From contig NZ_CP059556.1 of NCBI RefSeq assembly GCF_024734405.1, forward strand, positions 4,526,001 to 4,590,000: 64,000 bases of DNA, given 5' to 3'. Shown here piece by piece: positions 1 through 56,394 of the stretch. This stretch comes from Saccharopolyspora gregorii. GTDB taxonomy: Bacteria; Actinomycetota; Actinomycetes; Mycobacteriales; Pseudonocardiaceae. A program made the position numbers and the translations under genes. A model generated the notes under the pieces. It saw nothing but the letters and a program-made list of their open reading frames with translations. It was not told where the DNA came from and did not search any database. Each line of letters begins with the position of its first letter. The stretch's first letter is position 1.

Positions 1-333
1 TGCCGCGCCCTCGTGTCGCGGCCCGAGCTGCTGCTGATGGACGAACCGTTCGGCGCGCTCGACGCCATGACCCGGGACTCGATGAACTTCGAGATCCAGC
101 GGATCTGGCGCAACACCGGGTGCAGCGTCCTGTTCGTCACGCACAGCATCCCGGAAGCGGTGTGGCTGGCCGATCGCGTCGTCGTGGTCGGCGGCAAACC
201 GGGCCGCATCGTCGCCGACGTCGGCGTCGACCTGCCGCGGCCGCGCGGCAAGGAGCACCGCTTCTCCCCCGACTTCTCCGAGTACGCGACCGAGATCGAG
301 TCGCACATCGGCGTCACCACCGGCATCAGCTGA
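1..333 (+). CDS. ABC transporter ATP-binding protein, nitrate/sulfonate/taurine type (5' end outside window)
   Basis: This is the C-terminal part of an ATPase that energises import of a small organic or inorganic anion at the membrane. The reading frame runs open to the left edge, so the start lies outside. Visible are the Walker B and D-loop (LLLMDEPFGALDAMTR) and the H-loop region (LFVTHSIPEAVWLADRV), the pattern of SsuB/TauB/NrtD ATPases. About 110 residues are present; the family is usually about 260 long, so the Walker A and signature motifs are missing only because of the window edge. The stop is 20 bases before the next gene, so an operon is likely. The substrate cannot be read from this fragment. 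Confidence 0.9.
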   Translation, partial: CRALVSRPELLLMDEPFGALDAMTRDSMNFEIQRIWRNTGCSVLFVTHSIPEAVWLADRVVVVGGKPGRIVADVGVDLPRPRGKEHRFSPDFSEYATEIESHIGVTTGIS

Positions 334-3543: not shown

Positions 3544-4124
3544 AGCCGGTCCACCAGGTCCGCCGCCATCGTCCGCGCGTGCCGCAGCCGTTCCCCGTCG
3601 CCTTCGAGCCCGGCGCGGGCCATCGCGCCTTCGAGCAGGAACGCCAGGTGTTCGGCGGCGGCGCGCGCGTCCTCGGGCCGGTCGGGCAGCTGCTCGCCGA
3701 GGGCGTCGGCGAGCAGCGACTCGACCTCTTCCTTGTGCCTGCGCACCACCGCCCGGCCGTCGTGCCCGGCGGGCAGCTCGGCGGCCGCGTTGAGCAGCCC
3801 GCAGCCGCGGAACCCGTGCTCGTGGGCGAGTTCCGCGTGGTCCGCGTACGCGTCGAAGACGGCGAGCACCCGGCCGCGCGCGTCCGCGGCCCGCGCCAGC
3901 CGCCGCCGGTGCAGCTCCCGCCACTCGTCGTGCCGCGCTTCGAGGTAGGCGCGCACCAGGTCCGCCTTGGAGGAGAAGTTGTTGTAGAGGCTCATCTTCG
4001 CGACACCGGCTTCGGTGGTGATCGCGTCGATCCCCGTCGCGGACACCCCGTCCCGGTAGAAGCGGCGCGCCGCCGCCGCGAGCAACCGCTCGCGCGCGCT
4101 GTGCCGAGCACCCGCACCGACCAC
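3540..4124 (-). CDS. TetR family transcriptional regulator
   Basis: A 194-residue regulator. The N-terminal helix-turn-helix is clear (ARERLLAAAARRFYRDG, then GIDAITTEAGVAKMSLYNNF), followed by an all-helical ligand and dimer domain with a HGFRGCGLLNAAAEL segment. The GTG start follows GAGGAGG. It is the first gene of a two-gene operon with the DMT exporter and has a 22-bp palindrome just upstream, so it probably represses itself and the exporter until the export substrate, or a similar molecule, binds. Confidence 0.93.
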   Translation of the reverse strand: MVGAGARHSARERLLAAAARRFYRDGVSATGIDAITTEAGVAKMSLYNNFSSKADLVRAYLEARHDEWRELHRRRLARAADARGRVLAVFDAYADHAELAHEHGFRGCGLLNAAAELPAGHDGRAVVRRHKEEVESLLADALGEQLPDRPEDARAAAEHLAFLLEGAMARAGLEGDGERLRHARTMAADLVDRL

Positions 4125-4146
4125 CGCGACCTCCTCGCCACCGCGA

Positions 4147-4168
4147 CTGGGTAGACCAGTCTACCCAG
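4147..4168. promoter_or_regulatory. 22-bp palindromic operator of the TetR gene
   Basis: CTGGGTAGAC and GTCTACCCAG are perfect 10-bp inverted arms around a central CA, 23 bases upstream of the TetR start. The size and the TAGAC/GTCTA core are typical of TetR-family sites. It would overlap the promoter core of the regulator-exporter operon. Confidence 0.8.
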
Positions 4169-4247
4169 CCAGTTGCCGAGGACCAGCTCGCCCCGGACGG
4201 CCGAGCACTCGACCGGACGACCTCGCGACGACCCGGACGATCGGCGA

Positions 4248-4976
4248 TCAGCACAGGTCGTAGCGGGGGATGGTGCCGAGCAGGTGGGTCAGGTCGGTGC
4301 CGGGCGCGAGGTCCCGCGCCGGGGCGCGGCGGGTGAACAGCCGGGCCGCGTCGGCGCCGCCCAGCTCGGCGCGGCGACCGCGGACCCGCAGCCAGGCTCC
4401 TTCCCGCAGGGCGAGCACCGGGACGTCGTTGTGCTCCAGGAACTCGGCGATGCGCTCGTCGCGGGTCTCGCCGCGGTGCGTGCTCGCCGGGTCCGGCGGC
4501 AGGTAGTGCGGGTTGATCTGGAACGGCACCAGGCCGAGCGCGGCGAACGAGGCCGGTTGCACGATCGGCATGTCGTTGCTGGTGCGCAGGCTCGGGCAGG
4601 CCAGGTTGGTGCCCGCGCTGGAACCCAGGTACGGCACACCCGCCAGCACGGCGCGGCGCAGCGCGCGGACCAGGCCCTGCCGCTGCAAGGTCGCGAGCAG
4701 CCGGAACGTGTTGCCCCCACCCAGGAACACGGCTTCCGCCGACGCGATGGCGCGCACCGGATCGGTGGCGCGGTGCAGGCCGTCGACCTTGATCCCGGCG
4801 GAGCTGAGCACCGAGTGCGCGATGCGCGCGTAGTCGTCGAAGTCGCGGCGGGCGTAGGGGATGAACAGCATCCGCTCCCGGCCGGCCATCAGCTCCGCGA
4901 TCGCGGGCAATGCGTGCCCGAGGAAGCCCGGCGACCCGTGCACCCGTGAGCTCGACAGCAGGAGCAGCTGCACCAC
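4248..4976 (-). CDS. pepE: Peptidase E (alpha-aspartyl dipeptidase, family S51)
   Basis: A 242-residue cytoplasmic serine peptidase that cleaves dipeptides with N-terminal aspartate. The match to E. coli PepE is extensive: GGGNTFRLL, the nucleophile elbow GSSAG, TSNDMPIVQP and FQINPHYLP. With the start chosen, the Ser-Asp-His triad falls at about S120, D135 and H157, the E. coli numbering. A GTG six bases after GGAGGG is preferred over an upstream GTG (4994), which would add six residues not seen in the family; a second GTG directly after is also possible. Confidence 0.92.
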   Translation of the reverse strand: MVQLLLLSSSRVHGSPGFLGHALPAIAELMAGRERMLFIPYARRDFDDYARIAHSVLSSAGIKVDGLHRATDPVRAIASAEAVFLGGGNTFRLLATLQRQGLVRALRRAVLAGVPYLGSSAGTNLACPSLRTSNDMPIVQPASFAALGLVPFQINPHYLPPDPASTHRGETRDERIAEFLEHNDVPVLALREGAWLRVRGRRAELGGADAARLFTRRAPARDLAPGTDLTHLLGTIPRYDLC

Positions 4977-5062
4977 GGCATTCCCTCCCCGCACCCGTGA
5001 ACCGGAGCGAACCCTACCGCCGCCGCTGGAACCGGTGGGGCGGGACGGGCAGGATGACCGGC

Positions 5063-6265
5063 ATGGCCGGAGACGAGGACGTGACGATCATCGGCGGCGG
5101 CATCGTGGGCCTGGCCACGGCGCGGGCGCTGGTCCGCGGGGGCGCGGCCGGGCGGATCGTGGTGCTGGAGAAGGAGCCGGCCGTGGGCGCGCACCAGAGC
5201 GGCCACAACTCCGGTGTGCTCCACAGTGGACTGTACTACCCGCCGGGCAGCGCGAAGGCGCGGTTCGCCCGCACTGGAGCGGAAGCGATGCACCGGTTCT
5301 GCGCCGAGCACGGGGTTCCGGTGCGGCGCACCGGCAAGCTCGTCGTGGCCACCCGGCCGGAGCAGCTGCCGCGGCTGGCCGAGCTCGCCCGCCGCGGCAC
5401 CGCCAACGGCGTTCGCCTGTCCGAAGTGGACGGTTCGGCGATCGCCGAGCGGGAACCGCAGGTGCGCGGGCTGCGCGCGCTGCTGGTGCCGGACGCGGGG
5501 ATCACCGACTTCGGCGCCGTCTGCGCTGCGCTGGCCGCGGAGCTCGCCGCCGACGGCGTCGAGGTCCGGGCCGGCTGCGAGCTGCGCTCGGTGCGCCGCG
5601 ACGGCGACCGGCTCGTGCTGGGCACCACGACCGGCGAGGTGCGCACCCGGTTCGCGGTGAACTGCGCCGGGCTGCACAGCGACACCGTGGCGGAGCTCGC
5701 GGGCACCCGGCCGGCCGCGCGGATCCTGCCGTTCCGCGGCGAGTACTACGAGGCCGCGCCGGGGCGCCGCGACCTGGTGCGCGCGCTGGTCTACCCGGTG
5801 CCGGACCCGGCGTTCCCGTTCCTCGGCGTGCACTTCACGCGGATGGCCGACGGCGGGCTGCACGTGGGACCGAACGCGGTTCCGGCGCTGGCCCGCGAGG
5901 GCTACGACTGGCGGACCTGGTCGGCACCGCACCTGCGGCGGCTGCTGCGCGACCCGGCGTTGCGGGCGCTGGCGAAGCGCTACTGGCGGACCGGTGCGGC
6001 GGAGATCGCGCGCTCGGCGGTGAAACCGCTGTTCGTGCGGGCCGCGCGGGAGCTGCTGCCGGGGTTGCGCGGGACGGACCTGGTGCCCGCGCCCGCGGGG
6101 GTGCGGGCGCAGGCGGTGCGCCCGGACGGCACCCTCGTCGACGACTTCCTGGTGCACGAGGACGACCGCTGGGTGCACGTGCTCAACGCGCCCTCCCCGG
6201 CGGCGACCGCGTCGCTGCGCATCGGCGAGGACATCGCGGACCGGGTCGGCGCCAAGCTCGCCTAG
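5063..6265 (+). CDS. lhgO: L-2-hydroxyglutarate oxidase/dehydrogenase
   Basis: A 400-residue FAD-dependent oxidoreductase of the DAO fold that oxidises L-2-hydroxyglutarate to 2-oxoglutarate. The N-terminal dinucleotide site is VTIIGGGIVGLATARAL, followed by HQSGHNSGVLHSGLYYPPGS, which is characteristic of LhgO, and a C-terminal FAD-contacting segment (NAPSPAATASLRIGEDI). Two in-frame ATGs are nine bases apart; the second is chosen because CAGGA lies eight bases before it. It is divergent from pepE. It may link to the glutarate module about 30 kb away, since L-2-hydroxyglutarate arises in glutarate metabolism in some bacteria (inference). Confidence 0.9.
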   Translation: MAGDEDVTIIGGGIVGLATARALVRGGAAGRIVVLEKEPAVGAHQSGHNSGVLHSGLYYPPGSAKARFARTGAEAMHRFCAEHGVPVRRTGKLVVATRPEQLPRLAELARRGTANGVRLSEVDGSAIAEREPQVRGLRALLVPDAGITDFGAVCAALAAELAADGVEVRAGCELRSVRRDGDRLVLGTTTGEVRTRFAVNCAGLHSDTVAELAGTRPAARILPFRGEYYEAAPGRRDLVRALVYPVPDPAFPFLGVHFTRMADGGLHVGPNAVPALAREGYDWRTWSAPHLRRLLRDPALRALAKRYWRTGAAEIARSAVKPLFVRAARELLPGLRGTDLVPAPAGVRAQAVRPDGTLVDDFLVHEDDRWVHVLNAPSPAATASLRIGEDIADRVGAKLA

Positions 6266-6290
6266 GCCCGGCCCGCCGGACGCGTGCGGA

Positions 6291-6737
6291 TCAGTAGTAG
6301 CCGCGATCCCGGTAGTCGCGGTACTCGCGGTACTCGCGCTCCCGGTTCTCCGCGGCGTTGATGCTGATCCGGCGCACCACGCCGTGCAGCACGCTGCTGA
6401 CGATCGTCACGACCAGCGCGCCCCAGAACGCGGCCCAGAACCCGTCCACGTGGAACGGCATGTTCAGCTCGCCCGCCACGTACCCGGCGAGCCAGAACAG
6501 CAGCGCGTTCACCACCAGCCCGAACAGCCCGAGCGTGACCAGGTACAGCAGGCAGCCGAACGTCTTCGCGATCGGCTTCAGCACCGCGTTGATCACGCCG
6601 ACCACGACCGCGACCACCAGCAGGGTGACGATCTTCGTTCCGGCGTCCGTGCTCGCGTCGCCGAGCTCGATGCCGGGCAGCGCGGTCGTCGCCCACACGG
6701 CGACCGCGGTGATCAGGATGTGTAGCAGGACCGTCAC
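6291..6737 (-). CDS. Phage-holin-family (PF04020-like) 4-TM membrane protein
   Basis: A 148-residue protein with four hydrophobic helices (near residues 2-20, 35-55, 62-85 and 98-120) and the AVLKPIAKTFG loop seen in the 4-TM holin-like family widespread in actinomycete chromosomes, where its role is unknown. The GTG start follows GGGAGGC at a good distance; an upstream in-frame GTG would add 30 non-hydrophobic residues. The tail ends in a run of Tyr/Arg/Asp/Glu (EYREYRDYRDRGYY) encoded by near-repeats of GGTACTCGC and GGTAGTCGC. No phage genes are nearby. Confidence 0.8.
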   Translation of the reverse strand: MTVLLHILITAVAVWATTALPGIELGDASTDAGTKIVTLLVVAVVVGVINAVLKPIAKTFGCLLYLVTLGLFGLVVNALLFWLAGYVAGELNMPFHVDGFWAAFWGALVVTIVSSVLHGVVRRISINAAENREREYREYRDYRDRGYY

Positions 6738-6831
6738 GAAGTGGCCTCCCGAGTTCGCCGTGGAGCCTTGCACGCTACCGTTCCGGCCCCGCCCGGGAAC
6801 CGCCCACCGCGAGACGCGGGGATGCACCTGT

Positions 6832-7812
6832 TCAGGCGAACATCTCGTCGGTCAACCGGCGGATCGCCTCGGCGCGGGTGCACTGCCCGGCCCGCTCGTA
6901 GGCCTCGACGAAGCGGAAGACGAGCCCTTCGCGCAGCCCCCACGGGCACAGGTCGATCTCGTCGACGCCGAGGGCGCGCAGCAGCGAATCGGCGGTGATC
7001 GCGCCGGCGAGGATGCGCCGCGCCCTGCTGCGGGAGACGCCGGGGAGCTTGGCGCGCTCGGCCTGGCCGAGTTCGGCGAGCTGCGGGATCCACCGGGTCA
7101 GGTTCGTGCGCGCCAGGGTGTCCGGGTGCCGCACCAGCCGCTTCGACGAGCTCGCGGCGAGCACCGCCAGCTGCCGCAGCACCTTCGACTGGCCGACGGG
7201 CTGGCCGAGCCTGCGCCCGCGGAACGGGGCCAGCTCGACCGGGGCGACCGCTTCGACGGCCGCGTACAGGGCGGCGACCTGCTCCGGCGGCGGCGGGTCG
7301 GCGGGCAGGTGTTCGCGGGTGAGCCGGGCGGCGCCCAGCGGCATCGACACCACTTCGTCCGGGTAGGGACCGGATCCGGTGGCGACCTCGGCGGTGCCGC
7401 CACCGATGTCGATGGTGGTCAGCGGGGTGTCCTCGCGGCCGTGCCAGCGACGGGCCGCGTGGTAGCAGAGCGCGGCTTCGGCGTGCGGGGTCATCGAGCC
7501 GATGCGGGTGCCCGCGGCGTCGGCGAGGCGGGCGCGCAGCTCGGTGCCGTTGGTGGCGTCGCGCACCGCGGCGGTGCCGAACGCGACGAGCGGTCCGCGC
7601 AGGTCGGTGCCGACGGCGCGCACGCAGCACGCGACGGCGCGAGCGGCCTGCTCGATGCCCTCCTCGGTCACCGAGCCGTCGGCGAGGGTGTTCTCGCCGA
7701 GGCGGGTGCGCTCCTTGTGGCTCCAGGAGGCGCGGGGCAGCCTGCCGCGGTCGAGGTCGACCAGTTCCAGCCGCGCCGCGGTGGAACCGATGTCGAGGAG
7801 TCCGAGCTTCAT
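6832..7812 (-). CDS. Ppx/GppA-family phosphatase (exopolyphosphatase-like)
   Basis: A 326-residue protein of the actin-like ATPase fold. Phosphate-1 motif LLDIGSTAARLELVD, the AFGTAAVRDATNG strand, and phosphate-2 motif TIDIGGGTAEVATG are all present. Members hydrolyse polyphosphate or (p)ppGpp. It is the short, two-domain form usual in actinobacteria, which often have two copies. The ATG start is close to a divergent intergenic region shared with an F420-type oxidoreductase. Which substrate it prefers cannot be read from sequence. Confidence 0.9.
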   Translation of the reverse strand: MKLGLLDIGSTAARLELVDLDRGRLPRASWSHKERTRLGENTLADGSVTEEGIEQAARAVACCVRAVGTDLRGPLVAFGTAAVRDATNGTELRARLADAAGTRIGSMTPHAEAALCYHAARRWHGREDTPLTTIDIGGGTAEVATGSGPYPDEVVSMPLGAARLTREHLPADPPPPEQVAALYAAVEAVAPVELAPFRGRRLGQPVGQSKVLRQLAVLAASSSKRLVRHPDTLARTNLTRWIPQLAELGQAERAKLPGVSRSRARRILAGAITADSLLRALGVDEIDLCPWGLREGLVFRFVEAYERAGQCTRAEAIRRLTDEMFA

Positions 7813-26991: not shown

Positions 26992-27148
26992 CTGTCAGCG
27001 GCGAAGCCGATGAGCTGACGACCACGCACGCAACGGGACCACCCGCGGGTTCTCAGCTGTTCCCTCGCGAGGACAGCTTTTTCGTATGTGGCGGAGCCAC
27101 ATGCGAAAAAGATCCCGCAGCGAGGGAACAGCTGAGGTTCCGCCACCC
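26992..27148. repeat. Structured intergenic element, copy A
   Basis: First of three related elements. Order: hairpin 1 (TCAGCGGC-GAA-GCCGATGA, 26995-27013, one mismatch); a conserved GACCACCCGCGGGTTC; left main arm 27053-27068; inner stem 27077-27092 with 27096-27111 around loop GGA; right main arm 27120-27135; then GGTTCCGCCACCC. The main stem is 16 perfect bp; its variable part is TGTTCCCT paired with AGGGAACA. The inner stem is 16 bp with one G-U. It lies downstream of the response regulator stop and upstream of the Gfo/Idh start. Confidence 0.9.
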
Positions 27149-27180
27149 GCCCCACAACGCAGCAGAAGAGCCGAAAAGTC

Positions 27181-27873
27181 CTAAACCGAGGCCTCGGGAC
27201 CGTTCACCTGGCCCGGCGAGACGAGCCCCGTCTCGTAGGCGGTGATCACCAGCTGGGTCCGCGAGCTCAGGTGCAGCTTCTGCATCACGTGGTACAGGTG
27301 CGATTTCACCGTCAGCTCGGCCAGCCCGAGGTTCCGCGCGATGTCGGCGTTCGAGCCGCCGCGCGCCACCTCCAGCAGCACGTCCAGCTCGCGGTTGGTG
27401 AGCCCGCTGAGCTCGGTGGAGGCGTCCCGGACGCCGAGCGAGGCGAACCTGGTCAGCAGCCGCCGCGTCACGCGCGGCGCCAGCAGCGCCTCCCCGGCGG
27501 CGACGGTGTGCACCGCGCGCACCAGCTCCTCCGGCGGGGCGTCCTTGAGCAGGAACCCGCTGGCCCCGGCGCGCAGCGCCGCGTACACGTACTCGTCGAG
27601 GTCGTGCACGGTGAGCATGATGACCGAGGTCCCGCCCTCGGTGGCGGTCATGATCTCGCGGGCCGCGCTGATGCCGTCCATCCCGGGCATCCGCACGTCC
27701 ATCAGCACCACGTCGGGGCGCCGCCTGCGCACGGAGGCCACCGCGGCGGCACCGTCCTCGGCTTCGGCGAGAACTCGCAGGTCGGGCTCGGCGGACAGCA
27801 GCGCCACCAGTCCCGCGCGGATCATCGCCTGGTCGTCGGCGACGAGCACCGTCGTCTCCGCGGGGTGCTCCAC
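27181..27873 (-). CDS. NarL/LuxR-type response regulator
   Basis: A 230-residue response regulator. Receiver domain with acidic pair D13-D14, phospho-acceptor D59 (VVLMDVRMPGMDGI) and Lys in FLLKDAPPEE; C-terminal LuxR-type HTH (LTNRELDVLLEVARG, then NADIARNLGLAELTVKSHLY). Of two adjacent GTG codons the second sits six bases from AGGAGG and is chosen. It pairs with the histidine kinase just upstream, so phosphorylation by that kinase is expected. Its targets are not evident. Confidence 0.94.
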   Translation of the reverse strand: MEHPAETTVLVADDQAMIRAGLVALLSAEPDLRVLAEAEDGAAAVASVRRRRPDVVLMDVRMPGMDGISAAREIMTATEGGTSVIMLTVHDLDEYVYAALRAGASGFLLKDAPPEELVRAVHTVAAGEALLAPRVTRRLLTRFASLGVRDASTELSGLTNRELDVLLEVARGGSNADIARNLGLAELTVKSHLYHVMQKLHLSSRTQLVITAYETGLVSPGQVNGPEASV

Positions 27874-39400: not shown

Positions 39401-39555
39401 CTTGTCAGCGCGAAGCGCTGAGCAGCGACCACGCACGCAACGGCACCACCCGCGGGTTCTCAGCGGGATTCTCGCGAGGACGGCTTTTCCTCCTGTGGCG
39501 GAGCCACCGGTGAAAAAGATCCCGCAGTGAGAATCCCGCTGAGGTTCCGCCACCC
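39401..39555. repeat. Structured intergenic element, copy B
   Basis: Second copy. Hairpin 1 is TCAGCGC-GAA-GCGCTGA (39405-39421), a perfect 7-bp stem. Main arms are 39460-39475 and 39527-39542; the variable part is GGGATTCT paired with AGAATCCC, with a single G-U pair elsewhere. The inner stem (39484-39499 with 39503-39518) has the same GGA loop. Flanks CCACCCGCGGGTTCTCAGC and GCTGAGGTTCCGCCACCC match the other copies. It sits between convergent genes, after the FCD regulator. Confidence 0.9.
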
Positions 39556-39579
39556 CACCCCCTGGGCAGCGGCGACCGC

Positions 39580-40446
39580 TCAGGACGAGTACTCGTAAAA
39601 CCCGCGGCCGGACTTCTTGCCGTAGTGGCCCGCGTCCACCATCCGCTGCAGCAGCGGCGGCGCGGCGTACAGCTGCTCCTTGTACTCGCCGTACATCGAG
39701 TCGGCGATCGCCTTGAGCGTGTCGAGGCCGACCAGGTCGGCCAGCGCCAGCGGCCCCATCGGGTGGGCGCAGCCCAGCACCATGCCGTTGTCGATGTCCT
39801 CGGCCGCGGCCACGCCGCTCTCGAACATCCGGACCGCGGAGAGCAGGTAGGGCACCAGCAGCGCGTTCACCACGAACCCGGAGCGGTCCTGGGCGCGGAT
39901 GGTCTGCTTGCCGAGCCCGTCGGTGGCGAACTCGGCGGCGCGGCGCACGGTCTCCTCGGAGGTCACCAGGGAGGGCACCAGCTCGACGAGCTTGAGCACC
40001 GGCACCGGGTTGAAGAAGTGCACCCCGATGACCTGCGCGGGCCGCGAGGTGGCGGCGGCGAGCTTGGCGATCGGGATGGAGGAGGTGTTGGAGGCGAGGA
40101 TCGCGTCCGGGTCGGTGAGCACCCGGTCGAGTTCGGCGAACACCCCGGTCTTGAGCTGCTCGTTCTCCGCGATGGCCTCGATGACCAGCTGGCGGTCGGC
40201 GAGCTCGGCGAGCTCGGTGGTGAACCGGAGGCGCCCGAGTGCGGCGTCCCGGTCGGCTTCGGCGAGCTTGCCGCGGCCGACGGCGCGGTCCAGGGACTTG
40301 GTGATGCGGGCCCGGCCCGCTTCGGCGGCCTGCTCGCTGACCTCCGAGACGACGACGTCCAGCCCGCTGCGGGCGCTGACCTCGGCGATGCCCGCCCCCA
40401 TGAGCCCGGAGCCCACCACGCCTACGCGTTCGATTCCCGTCACCAC
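39580..40446 (-). CDS. 3-hydroxybutyryl-CoA dehydrogenase (FadB2/PaaH type)
   Basis: A 288-residue NAD-dependent 3-hydroxyacyl-CoA dehydrogenase. Rossmann motif RVGVVGSGLMGAGIAEVSA, the substrate motif GVHFFNPVPVLKLVELVPS with catalytic His, and GCAHPMGPLALADLVGLD. It turns 3-hydroxybutyryl-CoA into acetoacetyl-CoA, two steps after GcdH; the intervening enoyl-CoA hydratase is not in this window. Two GTG codons in tandem begin the gene. Confidence 0.94.
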   Translation of the reverse strand: MVTGIERVGVVGSGLMGAGIAEVSARSGLDVVVSEVSEQAAEAGRARITKSLDRAVGRGKLAEADRDAALGRLRFTTELAELADRQLVIEAIAENEQLKTGVFAELDRVLTDPDAILASNTSSIPIAKLAAATSRPAQVIGVHFFNPVPVLKLVELVPSLVTSEETVRRAAEFATDGLGKQTIRAQDRSGFVVNALLVPYLLSAVRMFESGVAAAEDIDNGMVLGCAHPMGPLALADLVGLDTLKAIADSMYGEYKEQLYAAPPLLQRMVDAGHYGKKSGRGFYEYSS

Positions 40447-55208: not shown

Positions 55209-55364
55209 CTGTCAGCGGCGAAGCCGATGAGCGGCGACCCAGCACGCAGCTCGACCACCCGCGGGTTCTCAGCGTTCTCCTCGCGAGGACAGCGTTTTCT
55301 CCTGTGGCGGAGCCACCGGTGAAAACGATCCCGCAGCGAGGAGAACGCTGAGGTTCCGCCACCC
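55209..55364. repeat. Structured intergenic element, copy C
   Basis: Third copy. Hairpin 1 (55212-55230) is identical to copy A. Main arms are 55269-55284 and 55336-55351, 16 perfect bp with variable part GTTCTCCT paired with AGGAGAAC. Inner stem 55293-55308 with 55312-55327; its base CGTTTT/AAAACG replaces the CTTTTT/AAAAAG of copy A, again compensated. It lies between convergent peroxiredoxin and sugar-binding protein genes. Confidence 0.9.
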
Positions 55365-55392
55365 GAGCCCCGAGCAACGGGTGGGGGATTCC

Positions 55393-56394
55393 TCAGCGAG
55401 GCGGGTCTGCGCAGGACGGGTTGAGGAGCTTCTGGATCTCCGGGGTGCCCAGGTTCTCCTTCGTCACCACCGACGAGCCGGTGTTCGTCTCCGGCGCGCC
55501 GCGCTGCTCGCCGCGGATCTGCTCGATCGCCGAGTTCACCGACGCGAAGCCCATCTTGAACGGGTTCTGCGCGATCAGGCCGGTGATCACGCCGTCGCGC
55601 AGCGACTCGATCTGCCCCTCCGAGGTGTCCCACCCGATGATCTTGATCTGACCCTGCTTGCCCGCCTGCCGCACCGCCTCCGCGGCGCCCAGCACGCTCG
55701 GCTCGTTGCCCGCGTAGATCCCGTTCAGGCCCGGGTTCGCCGTCAGGATGTCCTGGGTGACCTGCAACGCCGTGTTGTAGTCGCTGTTCGAGGACTGCCG
55801 CGCCACCAGCCGCAGCCCCGGGTTCTTCGCCAGCCCGCGCTCGAAGCCCTCCGCGCGCGTCTCGTTCGTGCTGGTGCCGGGCAGGAACTCGATGAACGCC
55901 ACCTCGCCGCGGCCGCCCAGCTGGTCCGCCAGCAGCTGGGTGCCCTCCTCGGCGGCCGCCACGTTGTCGGTGGCGAACACCGGCACCTCCGGCGGCTGCG
56001 GGCTGGTGCCCGAGTCCATGTTCACCACCGTGGTGCCCTGCTCCCGCGCGGACTTCGTGACCTCCGCCAGCGCCTTCGCGTCGGTCGCCGCGAACACCAG
56101 GCCCTGCACGCCCTGCGCCAGCGAGTCCTGCAGCAGGCTCTGCTGCCCGCTCACGTCGTCCTCCGAGGTGACGCCGTCCCAGTGCACGTTGACGTTCGGG
56201 TGCTTGGTGGCCGCGCACTCGGCGCCGACCCGCACCTGCTCCCAGAAGTCGAAGCCGATCGCCTTCGGGATCACCGCCAACCGGATCGTGCCGCCCTGCT
56301 GCGCGTTCGTCCCCGTGGGCCTGCGGATCTCCAGGCCGCACGCCGAGGACAGCAGCAGCACCGCCAGGCACACCAGCGGAAGGACCTTCTTCAT
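55393..56394 (-). CDS. Sugar ABC transporter substrate-binding lipoprotein (ribose type)
   Basis: A 333-residue periplasmic-binding-protein type 1 lipoprotein with signal LPLVCLAVLLLSSACG (lipid-anchored C19). The hinge and ligand regions follow ribose/xylose-type binding proteins: IPKAIGFDFWEQVRVG, LVFAATDAKALAEV, AFIEFLPGTSTNETR, KIIGWDTSEGQ. Last gene of an ATPase-permease-SBP operon that imports a pentose, hexose or polyol. Confidence 0.93.
   Translation of the reverse strand: MKKVLPLVCLAVLLLSSACGLEIRRPTGTNAQQGGTIRLAVIPKAIGFDFWEQVRVGAECAATKHPNVNVHWDGVTSEDDVSGQQSLLQDSLAQGVQGLVFAATDAKALAEVTKSAREQGTTVVNMDSGTSPQPPEVPVFATDNVAAAEEGTQLLADQLGGRGEVAFIEFLPGTSTNETRAEGFERGLAKNPGLRLVARQSSNSDYNTALQVTQDILTANPGLNGIYAGNEPSVLGAAEAVRQAGKQGQIKIIGWDTSEGQIESLRDGVITGLIAQNPFKMGFASVNSAIEQIRGEQRGAPETNTGSSVVTKENLGTPEIQKLLNPSCADPPR

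What the first reader, a model, noticed from the sequence alone, without database searches (positions are those of the whole stretch)
26992..27148. Three-copy structured element with a different self-complementary 8-bp block in each copy
Copies A (26992-27148), B (39401-39555) and C (55209-55364) share flanks, loops (GAA, GGA) and internal bulges GAGGAC(A/G)GC and GATCCCGCA nearly base for base. In the middle of the 16-bp main stem an 8-base block differs completely (TGTTCCCT, GGGATTCT, GTTCTCCT), and the far arm changes to its exact complement each time. Ordinary repeat decay does not do this; it implies selection for pairing, arm-to-arm copying (template switching), or variable blocks acting as addresses. 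It could be a structured RNA, a REP/MITE-like element, a specialised terminator, or the ncRNA of an unknown system.
Basis: seen in the sequence. Interest (0 to 1): 0.92.

Follow-up and report, generated by a model that had tools for sequence, protein, structure and literature searches.

The report
IS5-type MITE with covarying RNA-like hairpin
The three look-alike hairpins are copies of a short jumping DNA element found over a hundred times in this Saccharopolyspora genome, and its folded core keeps changing both arms of the stem in step even at a place where some species have a single detected copy, which suggests that the fold itself does something useful.

Summary
A, B and C belong to a dispersed family: 102 strict-pattern copies in this 6.34-Mb genome, 270 in a sister species. 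Stem arms covary; the nine highest of 12,561 column pairs are stem pairs. In S. rosea the element is an intact ~230-bp MITE: 18 of 27 copies with both TIRs have identical CTNAG duplications, and a 960-bp IS5-family IS shares its ends and target. At E<=1e-60 that transposase was not found in this genome or five congeners. Here the TIRs have decayed to near background while the core is kept. Best evidence for selection on the fold: a syntenic copy 3' of gatB in five species of another genus, the only model hit in three of them, with ten pairs changed on both sides. Most copies lie with the core's 3' end ~35 nt beyond the stop codon of an opposite-strand gene; intact S. rosea copies show no clear orientation bias, so I infer selective retention (small sample). 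Function is unproven; my guess is a 3'-end RNA element. The acting strand is unresolved: G-T excess in G000, none in two sister genomes. New variant of a known kind (MITE/REPIN).

The parts
26992..27148 (+). Copy A, conserved core (H1, linker, P2a/P2, internal loop, P3)
39402..39555 (+). Copy B, conserved core; also present at the same place in G001-G003 with different blocks
55209..55364 (+). Copy C, conserved core
26995..27013 (+). Copy A hairpin H1 (GAA loop)
27052..27068 (+). Copy A P2 5' arm; variable block 27058-27063
27120..27136 (+). Copy A P2 3' arm; complementary variable block 27125-27130
27069..27076 (+). Copy A internal loop, 5' side GAGGACAG
27112..27119 (+). Copy A internal loop, 3' side ATCCCGCA
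27077..27111 (+). Copy A distal hairpin P3 (second variable zone)
27149..27180 (+). Copy A 3' tail, region of the decayed right TIR, ending at the stop of the opposite-strand gene at 27181
39556..39579 (+). Copy B 3' tail up to the stop of the opposite-strand gene at 39580
55365..55392 (+). Copy C 3' tail up to the stop of the opposite-strand gene at 55393

Best explanation
The element is a ~230-bp non-autonomous DNA transposon (MITE) of an IS5-family insertion sequence. In its intact form, seen in S. rosea, it has 15-bp terminal inverted repeats and lies between 5-bp CTNAG duplications, which at some gene ends contain the TGA stop codon. A 960-bp IS with nearly the same ends and the same target is the likely mover in trans (inferred, not shown). 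Inside lies a structured core: hairpin H1, a linker and a long P2-P3 hairpin with conserved internal loops. In the window's genome no close transposase was found and the TIRs have decayed, yet the core is kept and its stem pairs go on changing on both sides. The most likely reason is selection on the fold at many individual sites, that is, exaptation of a transposon hairpin. It is shown most directly at the gatB locus of another genus, where three genomes have no second detected copy. In genomes rich in copies, exchange between copies probably also moves whole blocks and now and then leaves mismatched arms. My guess for the job is a 3'-end RNA element of the neighbouring gene: ending transcription, protecting the 3' end, or blocking convergent antisense reading. 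That last step is inference only (about 0.35); the MITE origin I hold at about 0.9 and selection on the fold at about 0.65.
For: Intact form with TIRs and identical CTNAG flanks in 18 of 27 S. rosea copies with both TIRs, of 52 core sites examined. IS with the same ends in S. rosea; IS5-family transposase by Pfam and NCBIfam. Of 20 related transposase loci examined, 14 had such ends and 12 of these identical CTNAG flanks, all in G017, G018 and G024. Decayed TIR regions (0.20 and 0.27 bits per column; outer flanks 0.12 and 0.18) beside a kept core (most conserved parts 1.78-1.96, linker 1.25, P3 1.50, variable P2 0.86). Covariation within the genome and across genera. In-place compensation at the gatB locus: ten pairs changed on both sides in five orthologues. 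Position and orientation next to stops in three genomes.
Against: No expression data. G-T over A-C excess in G000 (32:5) is absent in G001 (8:8) and G002 (14:12), so the acting strand and even single-strand selection are not settled. P2 columns at gatB differ more (0.12-0.41) than gatB third positions (0.16-0.19) in the four comparisons in register, which arm-to-arm templating might also give. In copy-rich genomes exchange between copies can keep the core alike. C-TGA-G is not enriched at adjacent stops (13 of 78 against 99 of 731), so target choice alone does not explain the stop spacing. The orientation contrast with S. rosea rests on 13 adjacency counts (p 0.037), is not significant for tandem pairs alone (p 0.12), and uses different rulers in the two genomes. 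No close transposase is in the own genome.
Confidence: 0.65

Rival explanations
1. Selfish MITE without host function: copies are alike because of past transposition and exchange between copies, which carries both arms of a block together; the fold matters at most for the element itself.
For: Blocks recur in many copies (53 distinct in 104 own copies, commonest nine times; 30 in 54 G001 copies). Orthologous B copies carry four different blocks, and the G002 copy has mismatched arms as partial exchange would leave. The 5' module is species-specific at shared loci.
Against: Ten pairs changed on both sides at the gatB locus in five orthologues, three of them in genomes with one model hit. TIRs decayed while the core stayed. 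No close transposase in G000-G005. Orientation and spacing next to stops.
Confidence: 0.22
2. Arm-to-arm copying: template switching during replication corrects one arm from the other, giving matched arms without selection.
For: P2 columns differ faster than gatB third positions in the four comparisons in register; no strand asymmetry in G001 and G002.
Against: Conserved internal loops and conserved P2 ends stay fixed while only the middle varies; G-T cells persist uncorrected (32 in G000; 6 at gatB); at gatB one pair is seen as C-G, U-G and U-A in different species, as a stepwise path would give.
Confidence: 0.15
3. The + strand is a free-standing structured RNA of an unknown system (for example an antisense or guide-like RNA running into the convergent gene), carried by the MITE.
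For: G-T over A-C on the + strand in G000 (32:5) and at gatB (6:0); internal loops conserved across genera; 3' end next to the 3' end of an opposite-strand gene.
Against: No strand bias in G001 and G002; no Rfam family at gathering score in the window and three weak hits at E<=5 over copy A, all far below gathering; no promoter or partner gene identified; TIRs and target duplications give an ordinary DNA route of spread.
Confidence: 0.12

Closest known systems
Bacterial MITEs of IS elements (review PMC10969869, passages seen)
   Same: Short, TIR-bounded, target duplication, mobilised in trans by a related IS, stable stem-loop transcripts; terminator roles proposed there.
   Different: Here the interior is a multi-part fold with conserved internal loops, covarying across genera and compensated in place after TIR decay.
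REPINs (PMC3116915, passages seen)
   Same: Hundreds of dispersed copies with conserved flanks and a variable hairpin spacer; [quoted passage not shown]
   Different: This element has TIRs with CTNAG duplication and an IS5-type mover, is asymmetric, about 230 bp, and has conserved internal loops; RAYT genes were not searched here.
BIMEs as terminators and exapted attenuators (PMC2965389, passages seen)
   Same: Repeated mobile palindromes reported there as bidirectional terminators and as exapted regulators.
   Different: Different sequence and mover (recalled for BIMEs); termination by this element is untested.
L17 downstream element (PMC2864571, passages seen)
   Same: Structured element in a possible 3' UTR that might be transcribed in the opposite direction; strand judged there by G-U pairs.
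   Different: Tied to one gene; this one is dispersed by a transposon to many genes.

Membership tests
MITE of an IS5-family IS | Terminal inverted repeats shared with an autonomous IS | tested here: met
   S. rosea: element TIR TGCCTGTCTTYGAAC, IS TIR TGCCTGTCTTTGATC; in the own genome the TIRs are decayed, 4 matches with up to 1 mismatch and 0.20-0.27 bits
MITE of an IS5-family IS | Target-site duplication | tested here: met
   Identical CTNAG in 18 of 27 S. rosea copies with both TIRs, of 52 core sites; in G000 only a relic: CTNAG 0.87 per position at +30..44 against 0.08 at +50..114
MITE of an IS5-family IS | Cognate transposase in the same genome | tested here: inconclusive
   Present in S. 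rosea, G017, G018; not found at E<=1e-60 in G000-G005 or in G010, G019, G031, G035, which also carry the element
MITE of an IS5-family IS | Transposase of IS5 type | tested here: met
   Pfam DUF4096 and DDE_Tnp_1; NCBIfam NF033580, E 6.9e-59
MITE of an IS5-family IS | Movement in trans by that transposase | not testable with these tools
   Needs an assay
REP/REPIN (RAYT-mobilised) | Associated RAYT (Y1) transposase | not tested
   No search for it was made
REP/REPIN (RAYT-mobilised) | Two inverted REPs forming one symmetric hairpin unit | tested here: not met
   Asymmetric: H1, linker, P2-P3
Intrinsic terminator | Hairpin followed directly by a T-run | tested here: not met
   Read from sequence on both strands; terminator scan not run
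Any Rfam family | Match at or above gathering score | tested here: not met
   0 in the window; weak hits only, E 0.048 to 0.43, far below gathering

The most novel reading that the evidence does not exclude
A structured RNA module spread across a bacterial family as the interior of an IS5-type MITE and was then kept, copy by copy, as a working 3'-end RNA element for a hundred or more genes per genome, gatB of one genus among them: a transposon-dispersed cis-acting RNA under selection at many sites at once.
Probability: 0.35. Interest if true: 0.82.

Novelty: new variant of a known kind. Interest (0 to 1): 0.62.

Why it matters
Compensated changes in repeats can come from mobility, from copy exchange or from selection on each copy. 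Here a clear mobile origin, the loss of mobility signals and in-place compensation in genomes with one detected copy can be told apart by locus and species. That makes the question 'when does a bacterial transposon hairpin become a working RNA element?' directly testable with strand-specific RNA-seq and stem-swap mutants in harmless soil actinomycetes.

Tried and rejected
Considered and dropped, on recalled features and not by dedicated searches: attC-like sites (the GTT/GTT flanks are not complementary), IS605/HEARO, IS110 bridge RNA, group II intron pieces, a SINE-like retroelement. Rfam gave nothing at gathering score. Plasmid and phage collections gave no match. Blocks as addresses: rejected, since the same blocks recur at unrelated loci.

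CTNAG preference as full explanation of the stop spacing: weakened (13 of 78 adjacent stops are C-TGA-G, against 99 of 731 of all genes). My early view that the + strand acts rested on G000 (32:5) and did not hold in G001 (8:8) or G002 (14:12). An early reading of a 40-bp TIR from five copies was given up: these look like head-to-head pairs with deletions. Six of the ten gatB third-position values printed are invalid (a one-codon offset between different C-termini) and are not used.

Dropped before counting: of 113 own-genome hits 9 partial ones under 60 bits were left out, and 2 of the remaining 104 lay at a locus edge. One search used 40 of the 104 copies. The gene-pair background comes from stretches chosen because they hold copies, so it includes the element's own gene pairs. 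The model searches used strict filters that lose weak matches; searches scored 150 first-look candidates per genome, of 3,617-7,227 and 4,180-4,798, so 'one copy' means one model hit. Genes were called by a home-made codon-usage finder. The structure counted was derived from that same alignment.

Full report
Observation. Copies A, B and C are at the stated places and share loops, bulges and flanks nearly base for base. The core is a hairpin H1, a linker, a 4-bp P2a, a 17-bp P2 whose six inner pairs vary, a conserved internal loop (GAGGACAG / ATCCCGCA) and P3 with a second variable zone.

Family. The window lies at 4,526,001-4,590,000 of a 6,344,421-base contig. A strict pattern finds 102 copies there (53 and 49 by strand; reversed control 0). 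A BLAST search scored 40 of 204 candidates. I analysed 104 of 113 hits. The sister genome G001 has 270 strict copies (control 0). Named genome contigs put the family in Saccharopolyspora (NFXS83, HNM0986, rosea, indica) and Labedaea; G002 is NFXS83 by shared contig coordinates and is in the window's genus. A covariance model finds the core in 40 of 150 genomes of the family (13 of 46 genera) and in 1 of 296 drawn from the class, the own genome.

Covariation. Among 12,561 column pairs of the 104 copies the top nine are all stem pairs. For 40 of these copies the covariation score is 0.173 (shuffles 0.059; best slid control 0.064), while the number of doubly changed pairs (11 against 9.6) and of pair types (30 against 28.3) does not stand out. 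For 26 copies across genera it is 0.390 (shuffles 0.104; best slid control 0.126), on a structure derived from the same alignment. There are 53 distinct blocks in 104 copies.

What it is. In S. rosea the motif TGCCTGTCTTYGAAC, with up to one mismatch, occurs 243 times (control 1) against 4 in the own genome. Inverted pairs bound 229-231-bp elements with the same core. Of 52 core sites examined, 27 had both TIRs and 18 of these identical CTNAG 5-mers on both sides. A 960-bp IS with TIR TGCCTGTCTTTGATC sits in a CTGAG of a core's own P2 in L087. Its 277-aa product is an IS5-family transposase (Pfam DUF4096 and DDE_Tnp_1; NCBIfam NF033580, E 6.9e-59). Of 20 related transposase loci fetched, 14 had such ends and 12 of them identical CTNAG flanks (G017, G018, G024). 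At E<=1e-60 the transposase is in 7 of 60 relatives, G017 and G018 among them, in none of G000-G005, and not in G010, G019, G031 or G035, which also carry the element. So the element is an IS5-type MITE, and the copies of this window are probably no longer mobile.

History. Five congeners share the gene order around the window. Copy B is present in G001-G003 at the same place; no hit was found at the sites of A and C in the relatives, nor anywhere in the 80 kb of G004 and G005; several sites filled in relatives lack the element in the window. At B four species carry four different blocks, and the G002 copy has arms that do not match, as partial exchange between copies would leave. In G001-G003 the 5' part is a different hairpin with an array of short hairpins.

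Constraint. In G000 the TIR regions carry 0.20 and 0.27 bits per column, near the outer flanks (0.12, 0.18); most conserved core parts carry 1.78-1.96, the linker 1.25, P3 1.50 and the variable P2 columns 0.86. The cleanest case is a genus of seven genomes, all with the core. A copy lies 3' of gatB at the same place in five species; in G097, G124 and G144 it is the only model hit, with 150 first-look candidates scored per genome. Between these orthologues ten pairs changed on both sides, eight of them in P2; of 160 cells 150 are Watson-Crick, 6 G-T, 0 A-C and 4 other, three of these four in G175. In the four comparisons whose reading frames are in register, unpaired columns differ by 0-0.08, P2 columns by 0.12-0.41 and gatB third positions by 0.16-0.19. 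A paralogue donor is excluded there as far as the model sees; arm-to-arm templating is not.

Placement. In G000, of 102 copies with neighbours on both sides, 61 lie between convergent genes (gene pairs in the fetched stretches: 140 of 717; p 3e-16), 27 and 11 between tandem genes of opposite and same sense and 3 between divergent ones. The gene beyond the core's 3' end is on the other strand in 88, with its stop 20-45 nt away in 78. G001 (22 convergent, 18 and 9 tandem, 4 divergent) and G002 (27, 21 and 10, 1) are alike. In S. rosea intact copies lie next to stops in both orientations, 6 against 7 by my reading, some with the TGA inside the duplication; G000 gives 78 against 22 with a different ruler (Fisher p 0.037). 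I read this as retention of one orientation. For tandem pairs alone the contrast (66:30 over three genomes against 3:5) is not significant (p 0.12). CTNAG is enriched where the right end should be (0.87 against 0.08 per position), but C-TGA-G is not enriched at adjacent stops (13 of 78 against 99 of 731).

Strand. G-T cells exceed A-C cells in G000 (32:5; 18:5 distinct origins, p 0.011) and at gatB (6:0), but not in G001 (8:8) or G002 (14:12). The acting strand is open.

Literature. Seen as passages: REPINs with compensatory spacer changes (PMC3116915); MITE review with proposed terminator roles (PMC10969869); BIME termination and exaptation (PMC2965389); the L17 element as a strand-by-G-U precedent (PMC2864571); a eukaryotic PHIS paper that could not decide between TNA and CTNAG duplications (PMC4482050). 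The listings, which show only the top of each ranking in an open-licence library, held no paper that I recognised as describing this family.

Verdict. Origin as an IS5-type MITE is well supported; selection on the fold is supported, best at gatB; the function is a guess.

Noticed in passing
G001, G002, G003 syntenic regions (L160-L171), sites matching window 25.8, 60.8 and 63.4 kb: 5' of the core these species carry a TATGTGCGAAGCACATA-type hairpin and an array of short hairpins with GTA, GAA or GGA loops in place of H1.
   Followed up: partly
L087 1702-3140 (S. rosea); also L226, L242: Nested insertions: copies of the element and of its IS sit in the CTCAG/CTGAG of other copies' P2.
   Followed up: partly
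G002 locus orthologous to window copy B (L161): A copy whose two P2 arms carry different block types, a likely exchange product.
   Followed up: partly
L203 2262-2603 (own genome 4180261-4180601): Two copies head to head; a few other copies look like such pairs with a deletion between them.
   Followed up: no
own copies L141, L144; A3 rows of other genera: Two P3 types coexist in one genome; the one with a GUGUA/UACAU apical stem is also found in other genera, and at the gatB locus G and A stand opposite each other in tandem.
   Followed up: no
genus of G124: second syntenic locus (L304, L315, L326) and third (L313, L319): Further low-copy loci of the core shared between species; in two of three copies of the second locus P3 has an insertion of about 50 nt while P2 still pairs.
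   Followed up: partly
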